64,000 nucleotides of DNA from Hemileia vastatrix (taxonomy: Eukaryota; Basidiomycota; Pucciniomycetes; Pucciniales; Zaghouaniaceae), in the NCBI GenBank assembly GCA_030280995.1, contig JASXTE010000005.1, positions 24,124,001 through 24,188,000 of the forward strand, written 5' to 3'. Of this stretch, positions 7,634 through 61,364 are shown piece after piece (within the stretch, counting starts at the first letter, position 1; each line of letters starts with the position of its first letter). The position numbers were made by a program, and so were the translations under genes. Below the pieces are notes generated by a model. It ran no database searches, was not told the DNA's origin, and saw only the letters and a list, made by a program, of their open reading frames with translations.

Positions 7634-7680
7634 GGGGGTATCAATGTTGACTGATCCGCAATTAAATTAATTGTGGAAAA
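7634..7680 (+). repeat. H1 left terminal inverted repeat
   Basis: Starts GGGGGTATCAATGTTGACTG followed by a small palindrome around AATTAAATTAATT. It is preceded by TTTAATA. Its inverted partner lies at 13745-13788. The same end recurs reversed at about 14376-14422 and 41260-41302. Confidence 0.8.
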
Positions 7681-8006
7681 TAATCTGCATACCCCAATTA
7701 TCTTCCGCAATTATTTTTGCTAATAATTGGGTTATTAGACACTTTACGTGTCAATGTTGACCTCTTATACAACATTTTTTACTCTATTTTTCATAACCAC
7801 ATATCGGAAAACCTTCTGTCATAACCACATCTTGGACTACTCCCTGGATATGCCTTCTACCTTGCTGCGCACTTCCATTCTCATCCCATCCTGTTCATTC
7901 TATCCGCTCAGAATTTCTCCCCATTTCATCTATTTGATTCTGCTCCTTTTCATCTCGCTATCTCATCTTCTTGTTTCTGCTCCTTTTTATCTTCATTTAT
8001 AATAAC

Positions 8007-9407
8007 ATGCCTCATCATCCTAGATCTTCTCAAAGGCAGCCATCACCCAGTTGTTCTTCAATTCCCACTACTTCCTCTTTCCCCCGCTCAGCCGAGAAAT
8101 CAAAGACCATTCAATTAAAAAAAGATGAACATCTCATTCTTATCAACTGGCTGAAAACCAAATCTAACTATGATTCTTGTTTTGGTACTGAGTATGCCAC
8201 TAAAGTAGGACGGCCCCCCGCATCAAAAGTTAATGGCCATCTTCTAATGGCAAATGAATTACGGAATAAGACCAAGGGAAGGATTGATCTTTTGCCTAAA
8301 CAGATGTCTGAACGATTCAAGCATTACCGAGCAAAATACAAGAAGACAAAGGCTCTTTCATCTTCCACTAGTTTTGGGGTTACTGACAACGATATAACTA
8401 AGGGCATAAAATCCATAGACAATAAACTTGAAACTTTATGTCCTTACTTTAAAGAGATGGATGCAAGTTTTGGAGAGCGAGCCAATGTTAATCCTGTAAA
8501 CATGTTGGATGGTGAAGATCCTATCTCGAAACATGATGTTGAAGCAAATCTTTTCCTATCCTCTTCCTCCACTCAAGCCTCCTCTCTTCTAAATTCTACG
8601 AATCTAGATAGCTTTGCTATTGATCCTATTGGCAATTTAACCCAACCCAATCTAACTCAGGTCTGTTTTTTTTCTTTTATCTTATCAATACTTTTTTTTA
8701 TTTACTTAGATTTTCTTATTTCTTAAAAGGCTGATGAACAAGCCCAGGACCGACAATCAACTGAGTCTGAAGCTAGTGACAATGATGAGGAGGAAAATGC
8801 TATGTTGAACAAAAAGCGAAGGGCTTCAAGTAGTCTAAATTTCCACTCCCAAAGAAGACAAAAAAGTGATACATCATCACAAACCCCTTTTTTGTCTATG
8901 GAACAATTTTTAGAGAAACGTGATGCTGGTAAGTGATACCATACCTATTAATACTTTATTCTGTTTTTCTTCTACTTTTTGTTAACATTGCTTATCACTC
9001 TAGAACAAGTGGAAGCTGCTAAAGAGACTCTAAAGTTTGAAAAGCAAAAATATGAGCTCTCTTTAAGGAGGGATGATAGGCTACAAGATATGGAATAGAG
9101 GAAGTACGAGCTCTCTTTACAGAAGGATGATTGGGCCCAAGATTTGGAGGAGAGGAAGTACTAGCTCTCTTTACGGAAGGATGATTGGGCCCAAGATTTG
9201 GAGGAGAAGAAGTTTGAGTTAACTCTAAGTATTGAAAAATCAAAAAAAGAGGAGAAAAAACTCGAACATCAAAACCTATTAGAGCAGATGAAATATAAGT
9301 TTGATCATGAAGAAAATTCCAAAAAGAAAGGTTTCTTGATAGAATGTGTTAAAGATAATAAATCTGTTGAGGAAATTGAACATTTAAAGAAATTGTTGGA
9401 TGACTAG
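8007..9407 (+). pseudogene. H1 accessory DNA-binding protein (Harbinger ORF1 type), two stops
   Basis: Three exons: 8007-8660, 8730-8928 and 9004-9407. The introns are GT...AG, 69 and 75 bp, phases 0 and 1, and the total is a multiple of three. The N-terminal part (KKDEHLILINWLKTKSNYDS onward, then KTKGRIDLLPKQMSERFKHY) resembles the Myb/trihelix-like second protein that Harbinger transposons need beside their transposase. That reading rests on position and character rather than a database match. The C-terminus is a charged coiled coil with 18-residue repeats (KYELSLRKDD...QDLEER). TAG stops interrupt two of these repeats, near 9097 and 9163. The copy at 39564-40911 is intact. An upstream in-frame Met (7971) would add MFLLLFIFIYNN, but it sits in T-rich leader sequence, so I prefer the Met at 8007. 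Confidence 0.78.
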
Positions 9408-9525
9408 TTTGTTTTATTTCTCTCACACTTCAACTGTTAATATTTATTTGTACATAAAATTTCCAATAATTTCCTTTATTTCATTACTCTACCACTTTTT
9501 TTAAATAAAATTTTCATGTCTCCTT

Positions 9526-9965
9526 TGAAAATTTGACGATCCCCCACCCCTGGATTTTTTTGAAGTAAGGGGTGGGTATCACAAAAATTCTTTCATGTCA
9601 TGAATCTTGAAAGTCTTATTTGAAAATTTGGCTTTACTACCTCCTGCATTTTACTGGTATCCCAAAAATTCTTACATGTCAAGAATTTCACAAGTCTTAT
9701 AAGAAATTTTGGCAAAACCCCCCATGAATTTTATTGAAGTAAGGGATGGGTATCACCAAAAAATTTTCACCAAAATATTTACAAGTCAAAAAAATTCTAT
9801 ATCTGTTTTAAAAAATTGGCGATACTCTCCCCTGCATTTTATTGAAGCAAGCGGTGGGTATCACCAAAATTTTTCTAAGTCATCAATTTCACATGTCAGA
9901 TTTGAAAATTTGGCAATACCCCCCCCCCTGCATTTTATTGAAGTAAGGGGTGGAAGTCATCTAAA
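9526..9965. repeat. Tandem repeat block of H1, about five units
   Basis: Units of about 80-110 bp, each with GAAAATTTGGC, a C-run, TGCATTTTATTGAAGTAAGG, GGGTATCACC and an AT-rich tail. The units differ in length of the C-run and by deletions. The same block, reversed, is at 39008-39430, and a two-unit version is at 22135-22340. It always sits between the Tet-like gene and another gene of the H elements. Confidence 0.8.
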
Positions 9966-10142
9966 TCTAATATAATTACATAAATTATTAAATAAATATC
10001 TAATATATATCAATTTCCCTAGTTTAAAGTAATGACAATTCCTCAAGCCAAAATGCAGACCAAGTCTAGAAACAAAAGTTTGGGACTTTCTACAGGTATA
10101 GGCAAGAGGAACCTCACAAATCAAACAAATAAATGTTATCAT
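9957..10142 (-). other. Conserved short open frame downstream of the Tet-like gene
   Basis: A 61-codon frame containing VPLAYTCRKSQTFVSRLGLH and ending NYIRFR. The same frame is open in the other two H copies (21933-22136 and 38807-39010) with few changes. It could be a last exon of the Tet-like gene or a small separate ORF. The conservation is also what recent copying of the element would give, so coding status is uncertain. Confidence 0.4.
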
Positions 10143-10256
10143 GATTACCTGTTATACAACCAAAGTTGTTGGCTCATCACATTACTTGAGAAAATTGATA
10201 TATAAAAAATATTTATTAAAAATTTATGAAAAAATATAAAATTTTCGATGACAACT

Positions 10257-10905
10257 CTAATCCCCATACTTTTTGGATCTAGATAAAGTTTTTTTAAATC
10301 GAATAACCTTACCTTCTTTCTTTACCTTATTGGTTCTTTGTATCAACTTATTACTGATTTGAAATGAGCAACCAAAATGTGTGAAATCTTGACAGGATTC
10401 CAAACCAGGAGGAGCTTTGGTCGTTTGATAATTATCATTAGATGAATTCCAAATAGTTTTGATGATACCATTTCCAAAACCAAAATCGATGATGCACCGG
10501 TGGTCTGGAAAATATAAACCATGTCATTTGATTTTAGCTGGAGATGGTATTGGTTGGCCAGTAATCGGTTTGATATATGAGAATATACCAAAAGTAAGAA
10601 AATTGGTGTCCTTGGTATCAGTGTGAATTTTATTGTGAAATCCAGAATGAGTGATATTAACATTAGAAAATAAAAGATATTTGTGGCTGATATCTTCCCA
10701 TTTGGAGTCACACCAATTCGGTATTCCAACTTTGGTTGCAAGTTCATAATTTTCTTCAAATGCTTTATTACAGAGCTTTTTGAGTCGAAAAGCAAGAAAA
10801 GAGTCAAAGGAAGGTAGAGTGTCCCATAAGCAAAAATCTTCATCTTTTTGAGCTTTAGTGATATTCTTGACCAAAGAATATATGCCTATCTAATTGAAAT
10901 GCCTA
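10257..10905 (-). pseudogene. Tet-like 2OG-Fe(II) oxygenase, decayed (H1 copy)
   Basis: Known members of this family (TET/JBP, expanded in basidiomycetes and rusts) use Fe(II) and 2-oxoglutarate to oxidise 5-methylcytosine or thymine in DNA. The frame runs from about 10905, after a TAG acceptor, to a TAG stop at 10257-10259. Visible marks: a fold entry ITHSGFHNKIHTDTKD containing the iron-binding H-x-D (HTD), then FGIFSYIKPITGQP, YFPDHRCIIDFGFGNGIIKTIW and FTHFGCSFQIS, in the order I recall for rust Tet-like proteins. Defects: a TGA at 10524-10526 before HGLYFPDH, a TAG near the exon start, and Tyr (NYQTTKAPP) where the two other copies have the expected distal His (NHQTTKAPP). Family assignment is from remembered motif order, without a search. 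Confidence 0.7.
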
Positions 10906-12146
10906 GATAATAATCATATAAGAGTTTCAGAATCCTTATCCTCTAAATATGCAATATAAAAATGTGAAATAAGACAAGTGAAATTTGGAAAAAAGGCTCA
11001 ACTTCAAAGGTCAAAATCTCAGCAACCACTGAACCTAATTCAAACCTGTTTGTGGGAAATGAAATATATGCTTTAGTAGAATCTTCAGTTAAAGGACATG
11101 TGATTTAAATAAACCTAACCCTAATTTGTTACATAAAAAAATGAAATAAAAATTTAAATTGGGAAAAAAAAGGCTCAACTTTAATGGTCAATATCTCAGC
11201 AACCACTGAATCAAATTCAAATCTGTTTGCAGGAAATGAAAGATAGCCTTCAGGAGAATCTTCAGTAAAAAGAACATTAGATTTGAATAAACCTAACCCT
11301 AAAACCGAGTCTGATTTTCAAAATTTTACAAAAACTTGAAAAGTGGTAATGAAGATGAGATCAAAAGGAGTTTTATAAGTTCACTGTTATCCAGATAAGA
11401 GTCATACATATATTTAAGTATGAAATTTTCATAAAAGGAATGAGATATCATATAGGTATGAAAAAAAGGAGATGAAACTTACCTTGATTGAAAAGTAGGA
11501 AAAATAGAGTGAGAAAGATTGATGTTGGAATTGTGGGGAAATTGAATATGGAGTAAGTGAAATGCATAAAGAATGAGCAATGTATGTGTTTCAATGAAAT
11601 GGAGCCAAAAAAAAGTGAAATAAGGGAAAGGGGGGATAATGACAATGCCAAGGAGGGATGAAGAGTAGGGTGATGGAGCTAAAAGAGAAAGTAAAGAGGG
11701 AGAGAAAAAAAGGTTAATTATACCATCGAAATCCAAAATAACCACTTACAAAAAAAATTTAGATAAAAAAAATAAAAAAAACAGAAAAAAACAAAAAAAA
11801 TTATAATTAGTAATCAAAAAATCAAAAAAAAAAGAATAAAATGACTTACCTGGAGAGATGAGATGACAAAATGAATGAAACCAAATTGTTTGAGGGATGT
11901 TGGAGGAGAATAGGAAAAGGATATGAGGGATGAATGAAAAAAAAATCACTGACAAAATATGCAATTTCAGAAAATATGCGATTTCATGTTGAGCTGGTGA
12001 AAGAAAACCAATGAGCCATCCAAAAAAAAGATATTCACCGTAAATTCAAAAAAAAAATGAATATGCAACAAACCAAAATATAAAACCAAGTGAATAAAGT
12101 ACACAAAGAGGACATTTGGAAAGTATGAAAACATAAAAATTAAAAA
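10906..12146 (-). other. H1 leader and intron-like region upstream of the Tet-like gene
   Basis: On the minus strand this holds T-rich segments and at least two fungal-type splice donors (AG/GTAAGT near 11857 and 11483), with short pyrimidine-rich exon candidates between. It is nearly identical to 19950-21180 on the plus strand. Two copies of a segment reading GGTTGCTGAGAT occur near 11030 and 11205. I see no convincing protein in it. Its ORFs are low-complexity F/L/S/I runs. Confidence 0.55.
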
Positions 12147-13460
12147 TTAAAAGCGTTGCAAAGTGAAACGTTGGAGAGTAATTGGCATTATAATGGAGCG
12201 TATGCCAGTTGATTGAATGATTTGTGAATCAAGGGAGGGGAATGCCAGTGGTGGTTCAGGATCCTCTTCTTCATAAAGATCATTCCACTCATCCTTTAAA
12301 TCAGCGCAAATATTGTGGAGTATTACACAAGTCAAGATCCAATGATTTGCAGTTTTGATCTCCAATTTTTTTTGAAATTGGATTCTGAGCTCCCGAAGAC
12401 TAGAAAATTTTCCCTTTAAAATACCTATAGCATGTTCAATTCGTACTCTTGATTGTGCAAGGTGATAATTAAAGGCAGTTTTGGGGTCATTTTCTGAAGT
12501 TGCACCACGGAAAGCAGGTATAATGTACTTTCCACTTGCATATGCTGAGTCTGCAAGGAGGTACTGAGATTCGTCAAAGTATGAGTCAGGGGATTGAGAA
12601 ATCCTCATTCTTTGGAAGATGGAAGAGTCATGACATGATCCAGGGAAGCCACTGTGAAAAGCAATAAATTTTTTATTGACATCATATACAGGTTGAACGG
12701 CGATAGAGTATCTAGAAAGAAGATAAAAAGTTAGATTGTAAAAGATGAGAACTTGGAGAAGATTTGGAAGAAACCTTTTTTTGTGATCAAAATAATGGTT
12801 GCCATCATGAGCAGGCTTTTGACTCAAAGTTATAGTTGTGCCATTAACAAATCCTACACAGCCAGGGAAACCTTCAGCTTGCATTACTTGAGAGGATTCA
12901 AGTCGCTGTTCTGGAGTTGGCCAAGCAAGAGTTTGAGACTTGAGGGAAAGGATAGCAATCATACAGCGCTTGGTGTATAATATCACGGTACCATATCCTA
13001 TGTTAAAGAGATTATCCAAATGTCTTACGGAAGCACCATTTCCATTTGAGACAAAGCAACATAGAGCAAAAGCAAGTTGAATGGCAGGATTACACTGTTT
13101 GTTATGAGAATTGTTATGGAAGATAGGATGTTCAGAAATGAGTTGATAAAGTTTGAAGAAAGAATCGGGAGAAGTTCTAAAAAGTTGGGTGAAGTTTAAA
13201 TGAGGAATGTTGAGAATGGAGGCCAGATTATATCGGGGATCATGATAAAGATTTGGCCCCCTGGTGATGATGTAACGCTTTTTGGAAAGTAAACACATAT
13301 AAGCTAAAGCATCTTCCAAATAAGAGTCAGATTTATAGTAGAGAACTAAAAGTAAAGTGATGGCATTAATAGTGGAGTGAAGTAGCCGTATAGTAGAGAG
13401 GTGTTTCATTGTTGCCGGTGGAAGGGTTATGTGATGAGGGAAGTGGGAATTCACCACCAA
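12147..13460 (-). CDS. PIF/Harbinger DDE transposase (H1), first catalytic Asp changed
   Basis: An open frame of 437 codons. A likely 63-bp in-frame intron (12712-12774, donor AG/GTTTCT, CTAAC branch, TAG acceptor) would give 416 residues and join HKK to RYSIAVQ, the usual family reading. The fold is that of DDE_Tnp_4: a helical N-terminal part (FTQLFRTSPDSFFKLYQLI), GNGASVRHLDNLFNIGYGTV, then the catalytic core. First acidic position: GFVNGTTI, Asn at codon 12843-12845 where family members and the copy near 22400 have Asp. Second: GSCHDSSIF (12627-12629). Third: RIEHAIG (12435-12437). Loss of the first Asp predicts no catalysis unless editing or an error explains it. It is transcribed from the right TIR, opposite to the accessory gene. 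Confidence 0.85.
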   Translation of the reverse strand: MVVNSHFPHHITLPPATMKHLSTIRLLHSTINAITLLLVLYYKSDSYLEDALAYMCLLSKKRYIITRGPNLYHDPRYNLASILNIPHLNFTQLFRTSPDSFFKLYQLISEHPIFHNNSHNKQCNPAIQLAFALCCFVSNGNGASVRHLDNLFNIGYGTVILYTKRCMIAILSLKSQTLAWPTPEQRLESSQVMQAEGFPGCVGFVNGTTITLSQKPAHDGNHYFDHKKRFLPNLLQVLIFYNLTFYLLSRYSIAVQPVYDVNKKFIAFHSGFPGSCHDSSIFQRMRISQSPDSYFDESQYLLADSAYASGKYIIPAFRGATSENDPKTAFNYHLAQSRVRIEHAIGILKGKFSSLRELRIQFQKKLEIKTANHWILTCVILHNICADLKDEWNDLYEEEDPEPPLAFPSLDSQIIQSTGIRSIIMPITLQRFTLQRF

Positions 13461-13788
13461 ATGTGAAGTTGGGGTGTGTAGATAGAAAAAAAACTTAAGT
13501 GTTTGCCACCAAAATTAAGTAGCATAGAGTGAGGAAAGACTTAAGGATGGCATCAGCAATTATGAGTCATTTGACTTTCTTGCAAATCCATCATGGATGA
13601 GATGAGTTTGTGATCAGGAATTAGGAATGGAAATTGGGGTATAAGAGGTGGGATAATGCATTAGGGTGGATTCCTTATCCACTAGCCCCAGGGCTAGTGG
13701 ATAAGAATCTTCTGCAATTAATAATGTCTGATCCCGGCAAAAAAAATTCCTGATCCCTAATTGCGGATCCCTGAACATTGATACCCCC
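13461..13788. repeat. H1 right subterminal region and TIR, with hairpin
   Basis: Non-coding end of H1. It contains a perfect 15-bp stem with a 2-base loop (13674-13705, centre ACTAGCCCCAGGGCTAGT) and ends in the inverted repeat closing at 13788. The same arrangement is at 14423-14759 and, reversed, at 16807-17135. It is found only at the transposase-side end. Confidence 0.75.
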
Positions 13789-14062
13789 TAATAAAACAAT
13801 TTAATACAATTATTAACATTTAGAAATATATTATAAAGCCTTTTATAAGTTGATATTATCATTATATAAGCTATAACTATATTCTATTTATCTATTTTCC
13901 ACCACTAAGCACACATTTAAATCCAAGTATTGTGAGTTTTATTTGAGTATAACTATTTTATTAGTCTTCCCCTGAGGTTTAATCACTAAATCATTTATCA
14001 ATAAGTAGTAGGGCCATAAATAAATACTATTATATCATACTTATATACTAGACATACTGACA
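13789..14062. repeat. Repeat A, right part of the split copy
   Basis: Matches 24515-24790, including CTATTTTCCACCACTA and AGTCTTCCCCTGAGGTTTAA. It continues the repeat interrupted by H1. It ends about 14062, where an H-type fragment begins. Confidence 0.7.
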
Positions 14063-14422
14063 GAGTGAGATGAAAAGGAGCAGAATCAAATAGATGAAAT
14101 GGGGAGAAATTCTGAGCAGATAGAATGAACAGGATGGGATGAGAATGGGAGTGCGCAACAAGGTAGAAGACATATGCAGAGAGTAGTCCACGATGTGGTT
14201 ATGGAAGAAAGTAGGCCAAGATGTGGTTATGACAGAAAGTTGTCCAATATGTGGTTATGAAAAATTGAGTAGACAAATGTTGGATAAGAGGTGAACATTG
14301 ACACGTAAAGTGTCTAATAACCCAATTATTAGCAAAAATAATTGCAGAAGATAATTGGGATATAAGGATTTTTATCTGCAATTAATTTAATTGCAGATCA
14401 GTCAACATTGATACCCCCTAAT
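14063..14422 (-). mobile_element. Truncated H element, accessory-gene end
   Basis: Reverse complement of the leftmost 340 bp of H1: pyrimidine-rich promoter region and TIR, ending GTCAACATTGATACCCCC at 14422, then TAAT. There is no gene. The inner break is at the repeat A junction. Confidence 0.75.
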
Positions 14423-14759
14423 GAAGTATCATAGAGTGAAGAGACACATAAGGATGAGAAAAAATGTTATGTGTTCGCCACCAAAATTTAGTATCATAGA
14501 GTGAGGAAAGACTTAAGGATGGCATCAGCAATTATAAGTCATGTGACTTTCTTAAAAATCCATCATGGATGTGATGAGTTTGGGATCAGGAATTAGGAAC
14601 GGAAATTGGGGTATAAGAGGCAGGATAATGCATTATTGTGGATTCCTTATCCACTAGCCCCAGGGCTAGTGGATAAGAATCTTCTGCAATTAATAATGTC
14701 TGATCCCGGCAAAAAAAATTCCTGATCCCTAATTGCGGATCCCTGAACATTGATACCCC
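14423..14759 (-). mobile_element. Truncated H element, transposase end
   Basis: Near-identical to 13490-13788, including the hairpin (14646-14677) and a TIR ending CCCCC at 14759, flanked by TAAT. Together with the preceding fragment it gives two H ends in the same orientation side by side, the product of truncation or recombination, without any gene. Confidence 0.75.
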
Positions 14760-15639
14760 CTAATGAATGAGTCAAAAAAAGTGGCACGAGGTTTTGGAAA
14801 TTACAGAAGGTACTTGAGCAACTTTGCTCATTTGATTATATGACTACAGAATAAATTAGTTACTAGAGTTTAATTGAGTAACGATTGGGGAGTAAGTCGG
14901 TAAAACATGCATACCGAACCACTTTACCGACACGGCTGCGGATGCTCTAAATAAGAATCGCGAGGACCCATTACGTCATAACAATTGGTGTCCCAAGGCG
15001 TGAATCCCATAAGGGGTTGGTGAGGTTTCTGTTGCTTCCATATTGGGAATTAGAGTCCCCGGCGAAACCTCCGGGTAATGAATTGGCGAATTTCTCCCAA
15101 GTTAGCACGAGGTGTTAGCTATATAATTAAACCTGTTGGTGCGACATATGGTTGTTCTTAGGTTCTTTCCAAGAGTTCGATTTATGCCATCTCAATAGAA
15201 GGACTCGAAGTGACGTTAATTTGTAGATTTGCTAGTATTTACCTGAAACCACTTGCTGAATGAGGTGAGGTGGGAAAAGTTGGCTGTTTGAATAAGTGTA
15301 TACCAAAATCATCTAAGAATTTGGGTTAACCCGTTTTCTTTGTGTCTTTAGATAATAATCTAAACGTGACCTGCTATGCAGTAATGCCAACTAACTCAGA
15401 AAAAATCACAAAGAAAGTTTCACCTATCCTTTCAAGGATTTGCATGCCCACAAAGCAAGTTTCATGATGGACTAACTGGAAGTAACACTGCAGGTCTAAA
15501 AAATACCGGTACCCATTCAGATCTCTGGTGAAGGAGGATATAAACATGGCAGTTCTATGTGGACAATGTTCAACATCCCATCATAAAAATATTTTTAAGC
15601 CTAATAAGCACAACAAAGACAGACATATTTTTTATAATT
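14760..15639 (+). promoter_or_regulatory. Upstream region of the secreted-protein gene
   Basis: About 880 bp with no recognised repeat and with more CG and CpG than the neighbouring transposons. No long frame is present. A short upstream frame starts at 15546. I cannot point to a defined TATA box. It is taken as promoter and 5' UTR by position only. Confidence 0.4.
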
Positions 15640-16299
15640 ATGATTCCCCGCATCAAATTTCAACTCTTAAATTTTTTGTCTCTATACTGTCTAACACTAT
15701 TGTTTTTATTCGTTGCTTTAATTCAAGCAAACGGCTGGAGTGAATGGAGGGTTATTCCGAACAGCGTACAAGTCACACACAATGACTTAGAGTGCACGGC
15801 ACAAATTGTTGGAAATAGAGATCCTTCTATAACTGTGTTTGTAAAAAATGTAGGAAGATTGTTTTATAAAGAATTTGAACTTCGGGCAGTGGGAGCACCT
15901 CGAGGTTGGAGGCAGAAAGTTGAGCCAGGCCAAGATTTAGATATAAGGGAGATAGCGGCACATACCCCAAACGTCATAGCTACTCAAATCCGTGTACGCG
16001 ATTTACATGGGCCCATGAGCTGGGGTAAGTTCTGGAAACTTCGAATTGGCGAAACAATAACACCCGGCGGCCTGGAATGTCGAACCCTTCATTTTGACGA
16101 GGAAGGAACTATTCTAAGCCTCTATTTAAGGAATCCAGGAACAGATTGGGTTAAGGAAGCGTATATTTACGATAAGAGGGAGAATAAAGTTGATGAAATA
16201 AGGGTAAACCCGGGCACAACGATACAGATGATTAATTTTGACATCCATCGCGGAGTAGGACCCACCTATAAAATCCGTGTACGGGATATTCCCCAGTAG
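15640..16299 (+). CDS. Secreted two-repeat protein, candidate effector
   Basis: 219 residues, no intron. The start at 15640 gives a classic signal peptide: basic start MIPRIK, hydrophobic core of about 20 residues (LLNFLSLYCLTLLFLFVAL), then IQANG before the mature N-terminus. An in-frame Met 27 codons upstream would bury it. The mature part is two diverged copies of one module, residues 36-121 and 132-216. Each opens with W-(R/K)-(V/L), has an LEC motif near position 16, a central V.PG or VNPG turn, and ends IRVRD. Only two cysteines remain after cleavage, one per module, so a single inter-module or inter-chain disulfide is possible. No family is recognised. Base composition and codon use are unlike the flanking transposons, with no stop or frameshift. 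It lies alone in a 1.8-kb island between H fragments and a gypsy LTR. Function is unknown; the effector role is inference from secretion and setting. Confidence 0.8.
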   Translation: MIPRIKFQLLNFLSLYCLTLLFLFVALIQANGWSEWRVIPNSVQVTHNDLECTAQIVGNRDPSITVFVKNVGRLFYKEFELRAVGAPRGWRQKVEPGQDLDIREIAAHTPNVIATQIRVRDLHGPMSWGKFWKLRIGETITPGGLECRTLHFDEEGTILSLYLRNPGTDWVKEAYIYDKRENKVDEIRVNPGTTIQMINFDIHRGVGPTYKIRVRDIPQ

Positions 16300-19538: not shown

Positions 19539-21183
19539 AGGGGGTGTCAGTTCTGGCAAATCCGCACTTAAATTAAGTGCGGATTTCAAACCAAATCAGC
19601 ACTTACAAATCAGCACTTAAATTTTGCAAAAAAGTCACTTATTTCAAAAAAGGGTGTCAGTTATGACCTCAAATCAGCACTTTTTTCCCGTTTTTTTTCA
19701 CAACCACATTTTGGCCACAAAACATCCCTTCCTTTCTTACCCCATCCCTGTCACATGTGACACACTGACCTTCCTTGCTACCTACCCATCAATCCTCGGC
19801 ACACACCCCTTCCTGAAATTTTCAATATTTTGACCAGGCATGTTTACATTCTTTTTTACTTATTTCTTCTACTTCTTAATCTTTTTTCTATGGGTGTCAG
19901 TTCTGACCTCAAATCAGCACTTTTTTCATGATTTTTTTTTCAAAACCACATGTTGGACACATCATCCCTTTCTTTCCCATACCATTTTGTACTCTCCAAA
20001 TGTCCTCTTTGTGTACTTCATTCACTTGGGTTTGTATTTTGGTTTGTTGCATATTCATTTTTTTTTTGGAATTTACGGTGAAAAATTTTTTTTGGATGGC
20101 TCATTGGTTTTCTTTCACCAGCTCAACATGAAATCGCTTATTTTGTCAGTGATTTTTTTTTTCATTCATCCCTCATATCCTTTTCCTATTCTCCTCCAAC
20201 ATCCCTCAAAAAATTTGGTTTCATTCATTTTGTCATCTCATCTCTCCAGGTAAGTCACTTTATTCTTTTTTTTTGATTTTTTGATTACTATTATAATTTT
20301 TTTTGTTTTTTTCTGTTTATTTTATTTTTTTTATCTATATTTTTTTTGTAAGTGGTTATTTTGGATTTCAATGGTATAAATAACCTTTTTTTTCTCTCCC
20401 TCTTTACTTTCTTTTTTAGCTCCATCACCCTACTCTTCATCCCTCCTTGGCATGGTCATTATCCCCCCTTTCCCTTATTTCACTTTTTTTTGGCTCCATT
20501 TCATTGAAACACATACATTGCACATTCTTTATGCATTTCACTTACTCCATATTCAATTTCCCCACAATTCCAACATCAATCTTTCTCACTCTATTTTTCC
20601 TACTTTTCAATCAAGGTAAGTTTCATCTCCTTTTTTTCATGCCTATATGATATCTCATTCCTTTTATGAAAAGTTCATACTTAAATATATGTATGACTCT
20701 TATCTGGATAACATTGAACTTATAAAACTCCTTTTGATCTCATCTTCACTACCACTTTTCAAGTTTTTGTAAAATTTTGAAAATCAGACTCGGAATTAGG
20801 GTTAGGTTTATTCAAATATAATGTTTTTTTACTGAAGATTTTCCTGAAGGCTAGCTTTCATTTCCCACAAACAGATTTGAATTTGATTCAGTGGTTGCTG
20901 AGATATTGACCGTTACAGTTGAGCCTTTTTTTTCCCAATTTAAATTTTTATTTCATTTTTTATGTATCAAATTAGGGTTAGGTTTATTTAAATCACATGT
21001 CCTTTAACTGAAGATTCTACTAAAGCATATCTTTCATTTCCCTCAAACAGGTTTGAATTAGGTTCAGTGGTTGCTGAGATTTTGACCTTTGAAGTTGAGC
21101 CTTTTTTCAAAATTTCACTTGTCTTATTTCACATTTTTATATTGCATATTTAGAGGATAAGGATTCTGAAACGCTTATATGAT
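19539..21183 (+). other. H4 left subterminal and leader region
   Basis: Repeated GGGTGTCAGTT...GACCTCAAATCAGCAC segments (19653 and 19892) follow the TIR, then the intron-rich leader shared with H1 (donors AG/GTAAGT near 20249 and 20617). It has only low-complexity F/S/I frames and no supported protein. Confidence 0.55.
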
Positions 21184-21839
21184 TATTATCTAGGCATTTC
21201 AATGATATAGGCATGTATTCGTTGCTCAAGAATATCACTAAAGCTCAAAAAGATGAAGATTTTTGCTTATGGGACACTCTACCTTCCTTTAACTATTTTC
21301 TTGCTCTTTGACTCAAAAAGCACTGTAATAAAGCATTTGAAAAAAATCATGAACTTGAAACCAAAGTTGGAATACCGAATTGGTGTGACTCCGAATGGGA
21401 AGATATCAGCCACGAATATCTTTTATTTTCTAATGTTATTATCACTCATTCTGGATTTCACAATAAAATTCACACCAATACCAAGGACACCAATTTTCTT
21501 ACTTTTGGTATATTCTCATATATCAAACCAATTACTGTCCAACCAATACCATCTCCAGCTAAAATCAAATGACATGGTTTATATTTTCCAGACCACCGGT
21601 GCATCATTGATTTTGGTTTGTGAAATGCTATCATCAAAACTATTTGGAATTCTTCTAAGGATAATCATCAAACGACCAAAGCTCCTCCTGGTTTGGAATC
21701 CTGTCAAGATTTAACACATTTTGGTTGCTCATTTCAAATCAGTCATAATTTGATTCAAAGAATCAATAAGGTAAAGAAAGAAGGTAAAGTTAATCAATTT
21801 AAAAAAACTTTATTTAGATCCAAAAAGTATGGGGATTAG
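21184..21839 (+). pseudogene. Tet-like 2OG-Fe(II) oxygenase, decayed (H4 copy)
   Basis: Same gene as 10257-10905. The exon opens after a TAG acceptor with HFNDIGMYSLLKNITKAQKD and ends at a TAG stop at 21837-21839. This copy keeps the distal His (DNHQTTKAPP) but has Asn for the iron-binding Asp (KIHTNTKD), the reverse of the H1 copy. TGA stops occur after LAL (about 21309), at 21570-21572 (the same place as in H1) and after FGL (about 21621). Neither copy could make active enzyme as it stands. Taken together they show that the ancestral gene had the full H-x-D...H set. Confidence 0.7.
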
Positions 21840-21932
21840 AGTTTTCATCAAAAATTTTATATTTTTTCGTAAATTTTTAATAAATATTTTTTATGTATCA
21901 ATTTCCTCAACTGAAGTAATGGGCCCACGACC

Positions 21933-22136
21933 TTGTGTTTTATAAATGGTAATCATGATAACATTTATTTTTTTCATGGGGTTCCTCTAGCCTATACCTG
22001 TGGAAAGTCCAAAACTTTTGTTTCTAGACTTGGTCTGCATTTTGGCTTGAGGTATTGTCATTACTTTAAACTAGGGAAAGTGATATATATTAGATATTTA
22101 TTTGATAATTTACATAATTATATTAAATTTAGATGA
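21933..22136 (+). other. Conserved short open frame downstream of the Tet-like gene (H4)
   Basis: Counterpart of 9957-10142 (VPLAYTCGKSKTFVSRLGLH... ending NYIKFR). It is open throughout. It may be a final exon or merely recent repeat sequence. Confidence 0.35.
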
Positions 22137-22340
22137 CTTCCACCACTTACTTCAATAAAATGCAGGGGGGGTATTGCCAAATTTTCCAATCTGACATGTA
22201 AAATTGATGACTTAGAAAAATTTTGGTGATATCCACCCCTTGCTTCAATAAAATGCAGGGGAGAGTATTGCCAATTTTTTAAAACAGATATAGAATTTTT
22301 TTGACTTGTAAATATTTTGGTGAAAATTTTTGACGAGAAT
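22135..22340. repeat. Tandem repeat block of H4, two units
   Basis: Reverse orientation of the H1 block (CTTCAATAAAATGCAGGGG...GTATTGCCAA). The second unit ends at the junction with the transposase fragment around 22340. Confidence 0.75.
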
Positions 22341-23225
22341 GTGAAAGTAATTGTTTCCACCTTGTGCAGGTTTCTGGCTCAAAGTAATAGCAGTACCATC
22401 AACAAAACCAATACATCTTGGGAAGCCCTCTGCTTGCATAACCTGAGATGATTCAAGTCGCTCTTCTTTTGTTGGCCAGGTAAGAAGTTGAGATTACAAA
22501 GAGTTGATGGCAGTGATACATTGTTTGGTATAAGTGTTAACTGAACCATACCCTAAATTAAAGACATTTTCTAAACGTTTCAAAGCAGCTCCATTGCCAT
22601 TTGAACCCAAATGACATAGTGTGATGGCCAATTGAATTGAAGGATGCTGTTGGTCTTTTTGAGAATTATTGTGAAATATGGGATGATCCTGAATAAGCTC
22701 AAGCAATTTAAGGAAAAATTCCTGAGAAGTCCTGAACAGCTGTCTAAAACTGGGTGTAGATAGGTTAAGAAGTGTTTGGATGGTGTACTTGGGGGTATGA
22801 AGTACTTGAGGCTTTCTGGGAAGAAGGTAACATTCACCACACAATATGGGGGGCGGACTTGCTAGCAAGTCCGCAACCTTGGACCCAAACTCACCATAGA
22901 TTGAACACACATTGAGCTATTGACAAAGGAACCATACAATCAGGGATGAACACCACTCAGCAGAACAGTTTTAGGTGGGTGTTCAAGTAGAGTTCAGTAT
23001 GGGTTCAGTATGAGTTCAGTCTGAGTTCCATCTGAGTTCCATCTGAGTTCAGGTTGAGGACTTGCTAGCAAGTCCACCCCCTATATTGCGTAGTGATTTT
23101 GTGGCCATTTTTGATAAAAAGACAAAATCTTCTTCTAGATCAGAATCAGAGTCCAAGAGCAGTTCAAGAGCCATGAAAGTCATTGCTTTATGTAATTTAT
23201 CACGATTTGAAAGTGAGGAAGGCAT
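22341..23225 (-). pseudogene. Harbinger transposase, sister subfamily, broken by a MITE (H4)
   Basis: Starts at 23225 with MPSSLSNRDKLHKAMTFMAL and an acidic stretch, is interrupted by the CACTA-type MITE (22835-23095), then continues CYLLPRKPQVLHTPKY, FRQLFRTSQEFFLKLLELI and GNGAALKRLENVFNLGYGSV. It keeps the first catalytic Asp (GFVDGTAI). It is truncated at about 22341, just after KPAQGGNNYF, where tandem-repeat sequence begins, so the second and third acidic residues are missing. Without the MITE and one ATT copy the frame reads straight through, so the MITE entered an open gene. It is roughly 50 per cent identical to the H1 transposase in this part. Confidence 0.82.
22835..23095. mobile_element. 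CACTA-type MITE, copy 2
   Basis: 261 bp, flanked by ATT (22832-22834 and 23096-23098). It carries the same termini, palindromes GGACTTGCTAGCAAGTCC near both ends and GAGTTCAG/GAGTTCCA subterminal repeats as copy 1. It has no coding capacity. Confidence 0.87.
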
Positions 23226-23650
23226 AACTCTTATATGATATGATATGAAGATGTAAATGATGTACGATGTTTTGAGTTATGAAGTGTTATGCTGCGGAGT
23301 GCTGCGTATGAATGGGATGATGCTGAAAAATCAGTGAAATGGGACTTGATGGTGAAATCAGCACTTTTGGTTGAGAAAGTGCGGATTTGAGTGAAATAAG
23401 TGACTTATTTCATTTTGAAATCCACCAGTATTGGGGCTAGTGTGTTTTGGAAATCCACACTTATTTAAGTGCGGATTTGTAAGTGCAGATTTGCCAGAAC
23501 TGAAACCCCCTAATATAGGTAGTATATAAAAAACTACCAATCCATGGCAGCTCCTTTAACAAAATCAATCAGGAAAAATGAGGCTTTCATATGGAATAAT
23601 GAAAGAGAAAATTCCTTTGATAAATTAAAGGAGTTATTAATAAACTATTA

Positions 23651-29171: not shown

Positions 29172-29868
29172 ACTGGGGACCTTTCCAAACGACGACGATG
29201 ATCAAGCCTGGCGACGAACGACAAAACGCACGGACCACCTATCAAAACAAAACTTTTGCCGCGACTGTGTTTCAAACTTGGGTTCGACATCTTAGGTTTA
29301 TATAATATTAATTTTTATATTATTTTGAAGTGATTTTTCGATCACTATAATAAGTTCACCTTTGCGCCTCTCACTCATATTACTATATTTTTATTGCAAT
29401 AACAGTGATTGTGGCTTAATTGCTGATTCACTGAGTGTAAGTGTTCAATTTTTAAATTTTTTTTTCCTAGTTGACCATTATAGAGTGTTAAATCCTCTTA
29501 GTCCTAGAAGAATTGACATTTTTTATTAATACAAATTGAATTATTAATTTAATTTTTTTTTATTATTAATTATTGTTAATTTTGGTTGACTTAAAAGTAC
29601 ATTGTGCTTAGTCCCAAATATATTGCCATATTTAATATTGGTAATTAATTGGTTGAATTAACTTAATTGTTATTCCCAATTTAACCTTGCAATCCATTTT
29701 TTTTAAAAAAAAAATTAATTTTTTTTTAATTATTACTTTATATTGAAAATTATTTTTTCTATAATTTAATTAATTAAATATTTTTTTTTTTATTTGGAGC
29801 AATTATTGACTAACTTTTATTATTTTTTTTTATAAAATAAAAAGTAAATTATAAATCTTCCCACTAGT
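29172..29868 (+). other. G2 leader with putative primer-binding site
   Basis: A PBS candidate TGGGGACCTTTCC begins two bases after the LTR (29174). The rest is AT-rich leader with T and A runs, up to the gag ATG. The primer tRNA was not identified. Confidence 0.5.
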
Positions 29869-38363: not shown

Positions 38364-39010
38364 AATGTCTTCTTCTTCAGATTCACCCCTTACTTCTCTA
38401 TCATCTTCATCTTTATCCTCTTTATCCTCTTCATCTTTATCATCTCTATCATCTTCTTCAAAATCAACTTCAATACAATCATCTTCTAAATCATCAAAAA
38501 AATTATCATCGAAACTCTTTGGAATTCTTCTCAGGATAATCATCAAACAACCAAAGCTCCTCCTGGTTTAGAATCCTCTCAGGATTTCACTCATTTCAGT
38601 TGTTCTTTTCAAATAAGTCAAAAGTTGATTCAAAGAATCAACAAGGTAAAGAAAGAAGGTAAAGTTAATCAATTTAAAAAACTTTATCTAGATCCAAAAA
38701 GTATGGGGATTAGAATTGTCATCAAAAATTTTATATTTTTTCATAAATTTTTAATAAATATTTTTTATATATCAACTTCCTCAACTAAAGTAATGGGCCA
38801 ACAACCTTGTGTTTTATAACAGGCAATCATGATAACATTTATTTGTTTCATGGGGTTCCTCTAGCCTATACCTGTGGAAAGTCCCAAAATTTTGTTTCTA
38901 GATTTGATCTGCATTTTGGCTTGAGGAATTGTCATTACTTTAAACTAGGGAAATTGATATATATTAGATATTTATTTAATAATTTATGTAATTATATTAG
39001 ATTTAGATGA
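38364..39010 (+). pseudogene. Tet-like oxygenase C-terminal remnant (H2) behind a Ser-rich segment
   Basis: A low-complexity TCT/TCA run from an ATG at 38365 (poly-Ser, ending SSKKLSSKL) joins directly to the last third of the Tet-like gene: NHQTTKAPPGLESSQDFTHF then SFQISQKLIQRINKVKKEGK. The H-x-D half is missing. One A is absent from the A-run near 38680, shifting the frame before the usual stop. The conserved downstream frame (GVPLAYTCGKSQNFVSRFDL... NYIRFR) follows at 38807-39010. The join replaced the catalytic half with unrelated sequence. Confidence 0.65.
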
Positions 39011-39430
39011 CTTCCACCCCTTACTTCAATAAAATGCAGGGGGGGGGGGTATTGCCAAATTTTCAAATCTGACATTCAAAATTGATGACTTGTAAAAATT
39101 TTGGTGATACCCACCCCTTGCTTCAATAAAATGTAGGGGGGGGTATTGCCAAATTTTCAAATGTAAATGTAAAATTTTTGACTTGTAAATATTTTGGTGA
39201 TACCTGTCCCTTACTTCAATAAAATGAAGGGGGAGTATTACCAAAATTTCTTATAAAACTTGTGAAATTCTTGACTTGTAAGAATTTTGGGGATACCAGT
39301 AAAATGCAGGGGGTAGTAACGCCAAAGTTTCATATAAGACTTTCAAGACTCTTGACATGAAAGAATTATGGTGATACCCACCCCTTACTTCAAAAAAATG
39401 CAGGGGTGGGGGTTTTGCAAATTTTCAAAG
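39008..39430. repeat. Tandem repeat block of H2, about five units
   Basis: Same family as 9526-9965, reversed, including a run of ten G near 39040. Units of 80-110 bp share CTTCAATAAAATGCAGGGG, GTATTGCCAAATTTTC and ATTTTGGTGATACC. Confidence 0.8.
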
Positions 39431-39563
39431 GAGACTTGAAAATTTTATTTAAAAAAAGAATATTTAACATTAAAATACGAAATTTCAAGAAATACAGTAA
39501 ATAATTGTAAAATTTATGTACAAATAAATATGAACACATGAAGTGTGAAAGAAATAAAAGAAA

Positions 39564-40911
39564 CTAGTCAACAAAAAATTTCATTAAATGTTCTATTTCT
39601 TCAACAGATTTGTTTGCTTTAACACATTCGATCAAGAAATCTTTCTTTTTAGAGCTTTCTTGGAGATCATGCTTATACTTCATCTGTTCCATTAAGTTTT
39701 GATTCTCGAGTGTTTTTTCCTCTTTTTTGGATTTTTCAATACTAAGAGTTAACTCAAACTTCTTCTCCTCCAAATCTTGGACCAGATCATCCTTCCGTAA
39801 GGAGAGCTTGTACTTCCTCTCTTCCAAATCTTGTACTCTGTCATCACTCCTTAAAGATAGCTCGTATTTCTTCTTTTCAAAGCTTAGAGTCTCTTTAGCA
39901 ATTTCCACTTGTTCTAGAGTGAGAATAAAAATTAACATAAAGTAGAAGAAAAGCAGAGTAAAGTAATAAGAGGTATGATATCACTTACCAGCATCACATT
40001 TCTCTAAAAACTGTTCCATCAAAGAAAAAGGGGTTTGTGATGAAGTATCACTTTTTCTTCTTCTTTGGGAGTGGAAATTTAGACTACTTGAAGCCCTTTG
40101 CTTTTTTTTAAACGTAGCATTTTCCTCCTCATCATTGTCGCTAGCTTCAGACTCAGTTGATTGTGGGTCCTTAGCTTGTTCATCAGCCTTTTAAGAAATA
40201 AGAAAATCTAAGTAAATAAAAAAAAGTATTGCAAAGATAAAAGAAAAAAAAACAGACCTGAGTTAGATTGGGTTGGGTTAAATTGCCAATAGGATCAATA
40301 GCAAAGCTATCTAGATTCGTAGAATTTAGAAGAGGGGAGGCTTGAGTGGAGGAAGAGGATGTGAAAAGATTTGCTTCAACATCATGTTCGGAGATAGGAT
40401 CTTCACCATCCAAAATGTTTACAGGATTAACATTGGCTTGATCTCCAAAAATTTCATCCATCTCTTTAAAGTAAGGACATAAAGTTTCAAGTTTATTGTC
40501 TATGGATTTTATGCCCTTAGTTATATCATTGTCGGTAACCCCAAAACCAGTGGAAGATGAAAGAGCCTTTGTCTTCTTGTATTTTTCTTGGTAATGCTTG
40601 AATCGTTCAGACATCTGTTTAGGCAAAAGATCAATCCTTCCCTTGGTCTTATTCCGTAATTCATTTGTCATTAGAAGATAGCCATTAACTTTTGATGCGG
40701 GGGGCCGTCCTACTTTAGTGGCATACTCAGTACCAAAACAAGAATCATAGTTAGATTTGGTTTTCAGCCAGTTGATAAGAATGAGATGGTCATCTTTTTT
40801 TAATTGAACGGTCTTTGATTTCTCGGCTAAGCGGGGGAAAGAGGAAGTAGTGGGAATTGAAGAAAAACTGGGTGATGGCTGCCTTTGAGAAGATCTAAGA
40901 TGACAAGGCAT
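39564..40911 (-). CDS. H2 accessory DNA-binding/coiled-coil protein, intact
   Basis: Exons 40258-40911, 39989-40187 and 39564-39913 (654, 199 and 350 bp; 400 codons with no stop). Introns of 70 and 75 bp have GT...AG ends. Residues about 40-150 form the putative DNA-binding part (KKDDHLILINWLKTKSNYDS; LLPKQMSERFKHYQEKYKKT), about 160-220 acidic linker, and the second exon a basic patch (KKKQRASSSLNFHSQRRRKS). The third exon is a charged coiled coil with 18-residue repeats KYxLSLRxDDxVQDLEER. Compared with the H1 copy it has exactly one repeat fewer (54 bp). Active Harbinger elements need a transposase plus such a Myb-like partner to enter the nucleus and bind the ends. That role is assigned here by analogy. 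Start chosen at MPCHLRSSQ, matching H1; an upstream Met would add hydrophobic leader residues. Confidence 0.82.
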
Positions 40912-41302
40912 GTTATTATAAATGAAGATGAAAAGGAGCAGAAACAAGCAGATGAGATAGCGAGATGAAAAGGAGCAGAATGAAAGAAAAGAAATGAGGA
41001 GAGGTTCTGAGTGTATGGGATGAGAATGGGAGTGCGCAGAAAGGTAGAAGGCATATGTAGAGAGTAGTTCAAGATGTGGTTATGGCAGAAAGTAGGTCAA
41101 GATGTGGTTCTGACAGAAGGTTGTCCAAGATGTGGTTATGAAAAATTGAGTAAAAAAATGTCGGATAAGAGGTGAACATTGACACGTAAAGTGTCTAATA
41201 ACCCAATTATTAGCAAAAATAATTGCGGAAGATAATTGGGGTATAAGGATTTTTATCTGCAATTAATTTAATTGCTGATCCCTGAACATTGATACCCCCT
41301 AA
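40912..41302 (-). promoter_or_regulatory. Promoter-side end and TIR of H2
   Basis: Purine/pyrimidine-biased leader of the accessory gene, then the TIR closing at 41302 (…AACATTGATACCCCC), followed by TAATATC of the solo LTR. It matches H1 7634-8006 inverted. Confidence 0.7.
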
Positions 41303-42289
41303 TATCATGGTGCACTTTGTATGTATAAATTAATTATTTAAAATTATATTATAAGTGTAAATTTAACTTACACTGTAATTACAATTTCAATAATAAAACT
41401 TATATAAACTAAATACAACTTATCACATAATACTATCCATAAATATTGGGCGCTTCCTTGACCCTTAATTGTGTCACTAAAGTTACTAAATTAATTAAAA
41501 TATTTATTTAATATGATAAATTTAATTTCTCATTCTAAATAAGTTATTTTATTAAATTAATTAGTTGTTTCAATTAATTTAATAATTAAATTACTTGAAA
41601 TAGTTAAAATGATTAAATTAACTTTTCTTATACTGAATTAAGATTTATTAAAAGCGTGAAAATAATTCCTTTTGTTTTAATTAAACCTTTTCAGCTATTT
41701 GTATTCCTTCTTTTAGATTTCTTTCTCACAGTTCTCATTTTTCATACTCACATAGTTATTTGTTATATTAATTCTATTCTTTTTTGGAAATTTCCGATGG
41801 GAAAAGTAGTTGCTTATTCACGGGTTTATTTTTTTTATGTTTTTAATTAAATTCTTTTAATTATTTGTTTCACATTATTTTACCCTTTTGTAAATACTAT
41901 TGGAACGCTCCAGAAGGTCCTCTTGCCTATAAAAGGGATTTGGAAACCTCTCTGGTAGCTCATTACTTATTACACACTCAACTTGAATATATCTTAAATA
42001 TAATACGTTTATTTACAATTTTTATTAGTATTACAGTTCTAATTAAAATATTATATTAATAATTAAAGGTTGCTTTAAGTCTAATGATAAATATAATTGA
42101 TTGCCGCGCTTTGAACATAATTACTAGTTAAAATATATTATAATTTAAATAAACCCTTACAGTTGTGTCAAGTCTCCAAGTTATCTTGTCGCCCTCTCTT
42201 TTAAAAATATTTTTACTATTTAATTACTTTGTCTTCCTCCTCTCTATTTCCTTCTCCTTCTTCTCCTTCTTCTAGACAACCGGCCGATA
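41303..42289 (+). repeat. Solo gypsy LTR, right part
   Basis: Continues the LTR broken at 16806 (ATCATGGTGCA..., CGCTTCCTTGACCCTTAATTG, TATA-like CCTATAAAAGGG near 41928, GCCGCGC near 42103). It ends CGGCCGATA, followed by AATAG at 42290-42294. No internal region adjoins it, so the element was lost by LTR-LTR recombination before H2 arrived. Confidence 0.88.
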
Positions 42290-60325: not shown

Positions 60326-61364
60326 TCACCAGCGGGTGGATCCACCATTTGCATCAATGACAGCCTTCATATGAGCAGGCATTGATGACACTAAGTGAAT
60401 AGGAGGCTCCTTTGGAAAGTGGTTCCATAACATTTCAAGACTCTTAATCATTTCGGTTGGAGTTTTGGGTTGATAAGATTCTTAAATTCACACCTTGAGG
60501 CATCTCCAAAGATTTTTGATTGGGTTCAGGTCAGGTGATTGAGCATGCCAGTCTTCTATTTTTCAGATACCTGAATCAGCTCAGAACTTGGCAGACACCT
60601 TGGAAGTATGGATAGGTGCATTGTCTTCAAGAAGAATGAGATTCTGGCTGAAATTGTTTTCTTGAGGGAAAGGGATAAGCGAGTTCTTATAGACATCCTC
60701 AATCAATGAATTTGAAGTCACACCTCCATTGTTTGGAAAGAAAAAAAGTGGTATCTTGTTACCTCCTTGGAATGCACCCCACACCATCACACTAGATTTC
60801 CCACTCTTGAAAGTTGGCTGGAGACAATCGGGTGCATATTTTCTCCAGGTCTTTGCCACACCAATGTTTGACTTGAGAGCTTTCCAATCTCAAATGATGA
60901 TTCATCAGACCATATTACATGCATCCAATCAACAACAGACCAGCCAGAATACTTGTGAGAAAAATTCAATTGTTTTTGGCGGTGGACCTCGTTGACAAAT
61001 GGTTTCTTCACTGCAACTCTCTTGGTAAAGCCCAGCTCATGGGTTCTCTTTCTGATTTAAAGGGAGACAAAATAGTTGGTAGTGAGTTTGAAAGGTCACT
61101 CAACTTGGCTTTGCAATTAGAGAGGATGAGTTGTTTGAGTTCACCCATGTCTTGTGAGTTTGTTTTGAGGGGACAACCAAAACGGGGTGCAGTTTCAACA
61201 TTTCCCCTAGCTCCCCATCTCTCCAATATTGAGCAAACAGTAGAGTCAGTAACACCTAGCTTTCTATAAATTTCAGCTGGTGTGATTCCTGCTTCAGCCA
61301 TGCCAACAATGCAAGCTCGTTTTGTTATTGTAAGTTGCTTCCTTCCAGGTCTAGAGGTCGCCAT
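60326..61364 (-). pseudogene. Tc1/mariner-type transposase, decayed
   Basis: About 346 codons in length, the normal size. The N-terminal paired HTH (LTITKRACIVGMAEAGITPA, LGVTDSTVCSILERWG) is followed by the DDE core: WSDESSFEIG (first Asp), SVMVWGAF, LLEDNAPIHTS (second Asp), then WHAQSPDLNPIKNLW near 60520. In this last motif Tc1 elements have Glu (NPIE) as third catalytic residue and this copy has Lys. It ends GGSTRW with a stop at 60326-60328. Frame breaks lie near 61010 and 60855, with stops near 60581 and 60565. Terminal inverted repeats were not found by eye. Confidence 0.85.

What the first reader, a model, noticed from the sequence alone, without database searches (positions are those of the whole stretch)
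10257..10905. A TET/JBP-like DNA-base oxygenase gene travelling inside a PIF/Harbinger-like element
Seen: on the strand of the H1 transposase and within the same TIRs lies a frame with the H-x-D entry (HNKIHTDTKD), a YFPDH...IDFGFGNGIIKTIW block and a distal basic/His position, the order I associate with rust Tet-like 2OG-Fe(II) oxygenases. The same gene occurs in H4 and, truncated, in H2. Known: TET/JBP genes in basidiomycetes have been linked to another transposon class (KDZ, Iyer and colleagues). Linkage to a Harbinger-type transposase plus a DNA-binding partner is not something I know to be described. Inference: the element could oxidise 5-methylcytosine at its own copies to evade silencing.
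Basis: partly seen in the sequence, partly recalled or inferred. Interest (0 to 1): 0.88.

Follow-up and report, generated by a model that had tools for sequence, protein, structure and literature searches.

The report
Tet oxygenase inside rust DNA transposon
A jumping gene in a rust fungus carries, next to its transposase, a worn-out copy of an enzyme gene of the Tet type, thought to strip methylation marks from DNA; such pairings were described in rusts in late 2025, and this one looks like a variant of them.

Summary
The reverse strand at 10290-10889 matches Pfam PF20515 (Tet-like 2OG-Fe(II) oxygenase; E 3.6e-17 and 4.3e-6 for its two pieces). It lies with a DDE_Tnp_4 transposase and a third gene between 31-bp TIRs (7634 and 13788). 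Eleven other loci of the 748-Mb genome carry the whole unit at 92-96%, so the oxygenase is part of the element. Corrections: the window copy is broken (in-frame stop, no match to the domain's first ~50 positions, Asn at the expected first catalytic Asp of the transposase); H2 is a full member of a chimeric 3.7-kb high-copy family, and H4 is the copy with a truncated oxygenase. The novelty claim fails: Kojima 2025 (PMC12730594) describes Tet-carrying Harbinger elements in rusts (PHISTA) and proposes the same anti-silencing role. But PHISTA is defined by TA duplications, whereas the 3.7-kb relative here fits a 3-bp AAT/ATT duplication, so it is filed as a variant, not as PHISTA. Further: a derivative spread with a dead oxygenase, about 17-fold CpG transition excess among copies (highest at TCG), and neighbouring retrotransposons almost free of CpG while the Tet element keeps a third of the expected CpG.

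The parts
7634..13788 (.). H1: PIF/Harbinger-type DNA transposon, 6155 bp, three genes
   Evidence: TIRs; 11 other loci match positions 1 (or 3) to 6155 at 92-96%
7634..7664 (+). left TIR, preceded by TAATA
   Evidence: 28 of 31 identical to the right TIR; flanks
13758..13788 (-). right TIR, followed by TAATA
8007..9098 (+). third gene, probably three exons (8007-8660, 8730-8928, 9004-9098 by inspection of GT..AG); meets an in-frame TAG where H4 reads on
   Evidence: weak PF13837 Myb_DNA-bind_4 match E 0.062, below cut-off; first-exon protein 91% identical to H4's
9504..9966 (.). repeated spacer between the third gene and the oxygenase
   Evidence: self-matches
10527..10889 (-). Tet-like oxygenase, N piece (121 aa) with HxD
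   Evidence: PF20515 E 3.6e-17
10524..10526 (-). in-frame TGA, present in 40 of 43 distinct copies read (most picked as best matches to H1)
   Evidence: 53 hits, 10 of them repeats of the same place
10290..10523 (-). Tet-like oxygenase, C piece with YFPDH and distal His
   Evidence: PF20515 E 4.3e-6
9759..12125 (.). stretch shared at about 95-96% with the chimeric 3.7-kb family
   Evidence: 19 of 19 fetched loci
12147..13514 (-). DDE_Tnp_4 transposase frame; Asn at the expected first catalytic Asp (near 12845)
   Evidence: PF13359 E 1.9e-23; alignment; position
19540..23510 (.). H2: full-length member of the chimeric 3.7-kb family (truncated second transposase, oxygenase segment, other TIRs)
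   Evidence: 96.7% to L032 over 3317 bp and 90.8% over 448 bp; flanks
38504..41304 (.). H4: truncated H element with third gene and C-terminal part of the oxygenase
   Evidence: 86.8% to H1 over 2890 bp

Best explanation
H1 is a decayed copy of a three-gene PIF/Harbinger-type DNA transposon of a rust fungus, kin of the Tet-carrying PHISTA elements but, by its relative's fit to a 3-bp duplication, perhaps a lineage beside them. Shown: an oxygenase of the Tet-like family built into the unit, many copies, and a broken oxygenase in the window copy and in nearly all copies read of a chimeric high-copy derivative. Inferred: in readable relatives the enzyme oxidises 5-methylcytosine at CpG sites of element copies; this would lower methylation-based silencing and C-to-T decay and, acting in trans, could also serve non-autonomous copies that use the transposase of others.
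For: PF20515 and DDE_Tnp_4. 12 of 28 scored candidates, the window included, are complete from TIR to TIR at 92-100%. The third-gene/oxygenase junction is present in 35 of 40 scored candidates, the window included. The transposase stands beside six Puccinia proteins (support 91/98). H1 and an older H-like copy differ in the oxygenase with pS 0.73 against pN 0.25, a sign of purifying selection (pS close to saturation). 14 of 150 scored oxygenase hits have open frames of 200 aa or more, 12 of them with no stop inside the match. Substrate signature: among 16 copies of the 3.7-kb family, C/T differences at NCG are 0.20-0.40 against 0.005-0.030 elsewhere, highest at TCG.
Against: The window copy cannot work as it stands. 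Most scored oxygenase frames are 129 or 133 aa long, which fits the same stop. The 3.7-kb family carries the dead gene and multiplied regardless. Copies still decay at CpG, and CpG o/e inside the 3.7-kb copies (0.29) is no higher than outside (0.32), so any protection is partial at best. Against close relatives the N piece shows dN/dS of 0.94 and 1.16. No methylation, expression or enzyme data were seen. The host methyltransferase search (PF00145) did not complete. No PHISTA reference sequence was at hand.
Confidence: 0.72

Rival explanations
1. The oxygenase segment is a mobile unit of its own that landed in H1.
For: A 2.37-kb stretch (9759-12125) recurs with constant limits in 19 of 19 fetched high-copy loci.
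Against: In those loci it sits inside a 3.7-kb transposon with its own TIRs (both ends found in 16 of 19), joined to a cut-off transposase fragment. H4 and 34 other scored loci share the third-gene/oxygenase junction across 9759, and 11 other loci carry the whole H unit across both limits.
Confidence: 0.04
2. The oxygenase is now a passenger: captured once, no longer needed, drifting while the transposase alone keeps the family going.
For: Stop shared by 40 of 43 copies read; Asn at an expected catalytic site in the H1 transposase too; copies decay at CpG; H1 against the 3.7-kb family gives dN/dS near 1 in the N piece (0.94 with L032, 1.16 with L002).
Against: Older divergence shows strong constraint (pN 0.25, pS 0.73); C-piece ratios to L032, L002 and H4 are 0.37, 0.38 and 0.19; many of the 150 scored PF20515 frames are long and stop-free.
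Confidence: 0.2
3. The enzyme adds a mark (hydroxymethyl, glyceryl or another modification) that shields or activates the element, or acts on 6mA or thymine, rather than removing 5mC.
For: Kojima names CMD1 (5gmC), CcTET (also 6mA), NgTET and human TET2 as nearest characterised structures and does not exclude other activities.
Against: The decay pattern points to methylated CpG as the threat. Nothing here tests the product.
Confidence: 0.2

Closest known systems
PHISTA (TET+ Harbinger with TA target duplications) of rust fungi, Kojima 2025, PMC12730594
   Same: Rust host, PIF/Harbinger-type transposase, Tet-like gene plus a third gene between TIRs, TA next to both ends
   Different: Here the 3.7-kb relative fits a 3-bp AAT/ATT duplication rather than TA; the third gene has a weak Myb/SANT-like match, whereas the paper finds none in its third proteins; a chimeric derivative with a dead oxygenase reached high copy number
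Nuwa and canonical PIF/Harbinger (per the paper: Nuwa has transposase plus Myb/SANT protein; both have 3-bp duplications)
   Same: Related transposase; a fit to 3-bp duplications; a possible Myb-like partner
   Different: Additional Tet-like oxygenase; AAT/ATT rather than the TTA/TAA that I recall for PIF
KDZ elements (Dileera, Kyakuja, Zisupton) with TET/JBP genes
   Same: DNA transposon carrying a Tet-like gene in basidiomycetes
   Different: Different transposase superfamily; 8-bp duplications reported for Zisupton

Membership tests
PHISTA (PHIS transposon with TA TSD) | TA target duplication | tested here: not met
   TA stands next to both ends in 18 of 18 (H1, H2 and the 16 of 19 fetched loci with both ends), but it does so in every shuffled pairing too, so it proves no duplication. 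The next base in agrees between sides in 16 of 18 (shuffles 9.3 on average; reached in 4 of 2000). Four insertions compared with clean empty sites (L037, L041, L044, L049) overlap by 5 bases where TA alone predicts 2. This concerns the 3.7-kb family; for H1 itself the empty-site comparison is unclear. A preferred AATAAT target with extra repeat units is not wholly excluded
PHISTA (PHIS transposon with TA TSD) | PIF/Harbinger-type DDE transposase grouping with rust TET+ families | tested here: inconclusive
   DDE_Tnp_4 E 1.9e-23; sister to six Puccinia proteins, 91/98; none of the paper's own family sequences was at hand
PHISTA (PHIS transposon with TA TSD) | Tet-like gene inside the TIRs | tested here: met
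PHISTA (PHIS transposon with TA TSD) | third protein without Myb/SANT domain | tested here: inconclusive
   PF13837 E 0.062 (H1) and 0.14 (H4), below cut-off; no relative among 134 candidates; model of mean pLDDT 46 is of no use
Nuwa (PIF/Harbinger) | 3-bp target duplication | tested here: inconclusive
   With element ends A...T, a 3-bp AAT/ATT duplication fits 16 of 18 flank pairs (shuffles 9.3; reached in 2 of 2000) and 18 of 21 with three short related elements (0 of 2000), and the four clean empty sites. L035 and L040 do not fit; a 1-bp duplication with TA ends fits as well (16 of 18)
Nuwa (PIF/Harbinger) | Myb/SANT partner protein | tested here: inconclusive
   as above: PF13837 below cut-off
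TET/JBP dioxygenase (PF20515 group) | family profile over cut-off | tested here: met
   63.5 and 27.3 bits against a cut-off of 27, the second barely
TET/JBP dioxygenase (PF20515 group) | HxD...H iron triad | tested here: met
   HTD and a distal His present, on either side of the stop; that these are the iron ligands is by analogy, not structure
TET/JBP dioxygenase (PF20515 group) | oxidation of 5mC | not testable with these tools
   no enzyme or methylation data
PU type of Kojima 2025 | PU-type conserved residues and tree position | not tested
   figures and supplementary sequences not held
KDZ transposons | KDZ-type transposase in the element | tested here: not met
   the transposase frame found in H1 is DDE_Tnp_4

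The most novel reading that the evidence does not exclude
In this genome mobile elements meet CpG methylation in two ways. Retrotransposons have purged CpG (the long-frame Gypsy at 29848-36035 has o/e 0.014-0.018), while DNA transposons keep CpG and carry Tet-like oxygenases. The oxygenase works as a shared good: families with a dead gene, such as the 3.7-kb chimera, still spread because readable relatives supply both transposase and demethylation in trans. The H family would then be a Tet-carrying Harbinger lineage with 3-bp duplications, beside PHISTA.
Probability: 0.2. Interest if true: 0.65.

Novelty: new variant of a known kind. Interest (0 to 1): 0.4.

Why it matters
If transposon-borne Tet enzymes really erase or rewrite methylation, they are a counter-defence of mobile DNA in eukaryotes. 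A genome with thousands of candidate copies in graded states of decay, and with CpG-poor retrotransposons beside them, would let one test by comparison whether an oxygenase protects the DNA that carries it.

Tried and rejected
Separate-insertion reading: tested and rejected. KDZ membership: rejected. PHISTA membership, which I first took as settled from the TA next to both ends: withdrawn. Missing first exon of the oxygenase between 10890 and 12146: nine pieces, no Pfam match. Relatives of the oxygenase N piece in the protein collection: none shared enough words within the allowed length range, so no direct comparison with named rust proteins. Third-gene relatives: none at E 0.001; fold of its first exon too poor to use. 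Solved structures with the N piece: one hit, transferrin-binding protein 2, E 0.021, taken as chance. I first took the transposase in L050 as part of the older L037 copy; its orientation shows a neighbouring copy, and the L037 copy has a cut transposase. The transposase ratios for L050 and the rows from 12300 on are therefore not used. Literature: searches gave no paper; PMC12730594 was the only listed title on Tet genes of DNA transposons. Of the other listed papers only PMC13297926 was opened (passages; it cites PMC12730594).

Full report
What is there. On the minus strand at 10290-10889 lie two open pieces of one frame with the order HTD ... YFPDH ... His. Both match PF20515, the Tet-like 2OG-Fe(II) oxygenase family: E 3.6e-17 over profile 51-159 and E 4.3e-6 over 177-211; the second is barely over the cut-off (27.3 against 27 bits). 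They are split by an in-frame TGA at 10524-10526. The first ~50 profile positions are not matched, and nine upstream pieces gave no match.

The element. The same strand carries a DDE_Tnp_4 transposase frame at 12147-13514 (E 1.9e-23). The plus strand carries a third gene from 8007. TIRs of 31 bp (28 identical) start at 7634 and end at 13788. Used as a query, this 6155-base unit gave 28 scored candidates in the window's own genome (748 Mb, 791 contigs). Twelve, the window included, run from base 1 or 3 to base 6155 at 92-100%; the rest are partial, five of them ending at exactly 3267 (window 10900). A second query over the third-gene/oxygenase junction (9000-10905) spans 1 to at least 1895 of 1906 in 35 of 40 scored candidates, the window included, at 93-100%; 11 of the 35 run to 1906 and the others end at window 10894-10900. 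One of the latter (C121:42975823) lies in a copy that one search shows full length, so that limit is partly local mismatch. The oxygenase is part of the unit.

The high-copy relative. The oxygenase stretch alone had 3882 first-look candidates, of which 40 were scored. I read 10-kb loci for 19 of the 39 non-window hits. In 19 of 19 the likeness to H1 starts at 9759 and ends at 12125. It lies inside a 3.5-3.8-kb transposon with other TIRs (GGGGGTGTCAGTTCTGGC...) and a cut-off fragment of a second transposase (53% identical over 176 aa to H1's) (both ends found in 16 of 19). H2 in the window (19540-23510) is a full member, not a truncated H1. Counting distinct places, 40 of 43 oxygenase copies read have the TGA; most of these were picked as best matches to H1, so the share is not that of the genome. 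This derivative most likely spread with a dead gene. Readable frames exist: 14 of 150 scored hits of the N piece have open frames of 200 aa or more, 12 with no stop inside the match. PF20515 itself gave 10849 first-look candidates, and 150 of 150 scored hits are over the cut-off, many of them long and stop-free.

Target duplication. TA stands next to both ends in 18 of 18 flank pairs (H1, H2 and 16 fetched loci), which I first read as the PHISTA duplication. Shuffling the pairs shows that TA is simply fixed on both sides. The next base in, A or T, agrees between the two sides in 16 of 18 (shuffle mean 9.3). With element ends A...T, an AAT/ATT duplication of 3 bp fits 16 of 18 (reached in 2 of 2000 shuffles); L035 and L040 do not fit. 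Of the 18 insertions, four have clean empty sites among the sequences held (L037, L041, L044, L049); their flanks overlap by 5 bases, where TA alone predicts 2, and 3 bp plus the fixed A and T predicts 5 in such targets. For H1 itself the comparison with an empty site is unclear (gaps 5, 0 and 15), as it is for L035 and L047; L031 has another copy of the family as its right flank. A preferred AATAAT target with extra repeat units remains possible. On this evidence I do not file the element as PHISTA; this raised novelty from new member to new variant and interest from 0.36 to 0.40.

State of the transposase. In the alignment with 11 relatives the expected first catalytic Asp reads Asn in H1 (the catalytic role is recalled from the family, not tested). 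By my count 82 of 101 scored transposase hits have no stop inside. In the two ranked lists, compared by eye, two pairs of transposase and PF20515 hits stand in the H1 order on one strand about 2.4-2.5 kb apart, both stop-free. About 0.05 such pairs would be expected if hits were spread evenly, though repeats cluster. A third pair within 10 kb has opposite strands.

Selection and swapping. H1 and an older H-like copy in L037 share the stretch 10900-12099 at 82-97% per 100 bases and the third gene at 82-91% (8000-8399), but only 47-76% over 10000-10899. Over 172 codons of the oxygenase pS is 0.73 and pN 0.25. The coding part being less alike than its flanks suggests that one lineage exchanged the oxygenase segment; the low pN to pS suggests constraint, with pS close to saturation and the bootstrap (0.095-0.264) usable in only 288 of 500 draws. 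Against closer relatives the picture is mixed: N-piece ratios are 0.94 (L032) and 1.16 (L002), C-piece ratios 0.37, 0.38 and, for H4, 0.19.

Methylation footprint. Among 16 copies of the 3.7-kb family, C/T differences are 0.20-0.24 at ACG, CCG and GCG and 0.40 at TCG, against 0.005-0.030 in the other contexts; summed from that table, 0.284 against 0.017, about 17-fold. H1-H4, H1-L032 and H2-L032 comparisons agree: 0.27-0.48 at CpG against 0.02-0.09; a Gypsy pair had only 5 such sites. Kojima cites TCG hypermutation as the Pucciniomycotina pattern (section read). CpG o/e is 0.33 in H1, 0.43 in its oxygenase and 0.41 in its transposase; 0.014-0.018 in the two long Gypsy frames at 29848-36035 and 0.073 in the other Gypsy copy (194-4713); 0.009 and 0.18 in two Copia-like stretches; 0.20 in a mariner-like one; 0.87 in the gene-like frame at 15544-16299. 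Inside the 3.7-kb copies it is 0.29, outside 0.32, so no local protection shows at that scale.

What is known. Kojima 2025 (PMC12730594; abstract and sections 4, 14, 23, 25, 26 and 34 read, plus passages) describes fifteen TET+ Harbinger families with TA duplications in six rusts, names the lineage PHISTA, and suggests that the enzymes counter silencing and hypermutation. Two anatomical differences are worth noting: the duplication (above) and the third gene. The paper finds no Myb/SANT domain in its third proteins; here PF13837 scores E 0.062 and 0.14, below the cut-off, so the question stays open.

Host. The best transposase relatives are Puccinia proteins (48% identity), and the tree puts H1 beside six of them (91/98). 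A rust is inferred; no tool names the species.

Limits. Genome counts are first-look candidates or best-scored subsets, not totals. No expression, methylation or enzyme data were seen, and the search for a host DNA methyltransferase did not complete.

Noticed in passing
29848-36035: Gypsy retrotransposon with two long frames (1264 and 809 aa, chromodomain at the end) and only 3 CpG counted in its two frames, o/e 0.014-0.018
   Followed up: partly
48967-52204: Copia-like stretch (label recalled from the look of its frames) with CpG o/e 0.009, while the Copia-like stretch 42565-46339 has 0.18
   Followed up: no
L037 1463-1984 and 77-1455: Older H-like copy whose oxygenase segment is far more diverged than the flanking element, with a sharp limit where H1 10898-10900 lies; the same place where five copies end
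   Followed up: partly
L037 3173-6905: A 3.7-kb element inserted in an H element; three related stretches of the window show the empty site, with a 5-base overlap of the flanks
   Followed up: yes
L035 7828-8026, L043 9319-9517, L047 1148-1346: Short elements of about 200 bp with related GGGGGTATCA-type ends, probably MITEs of the same group
   Followed up: partly
15544-16299: Open frame of 251 aa with a hydrophobic start and no Pfam match, CpG o/e 0.87, gene-like composition among repeats
   Followed up: no
14058-14425 and 14459-14758: Further H-type ends beside H1, a cluster of TIR fragments that can mislead the choice of the right end
   Followed up: partly
61008-61364: HTH_23 / paired-box-like frame, probably part of a Tc1/mariner-like remnant
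   Followed up: no
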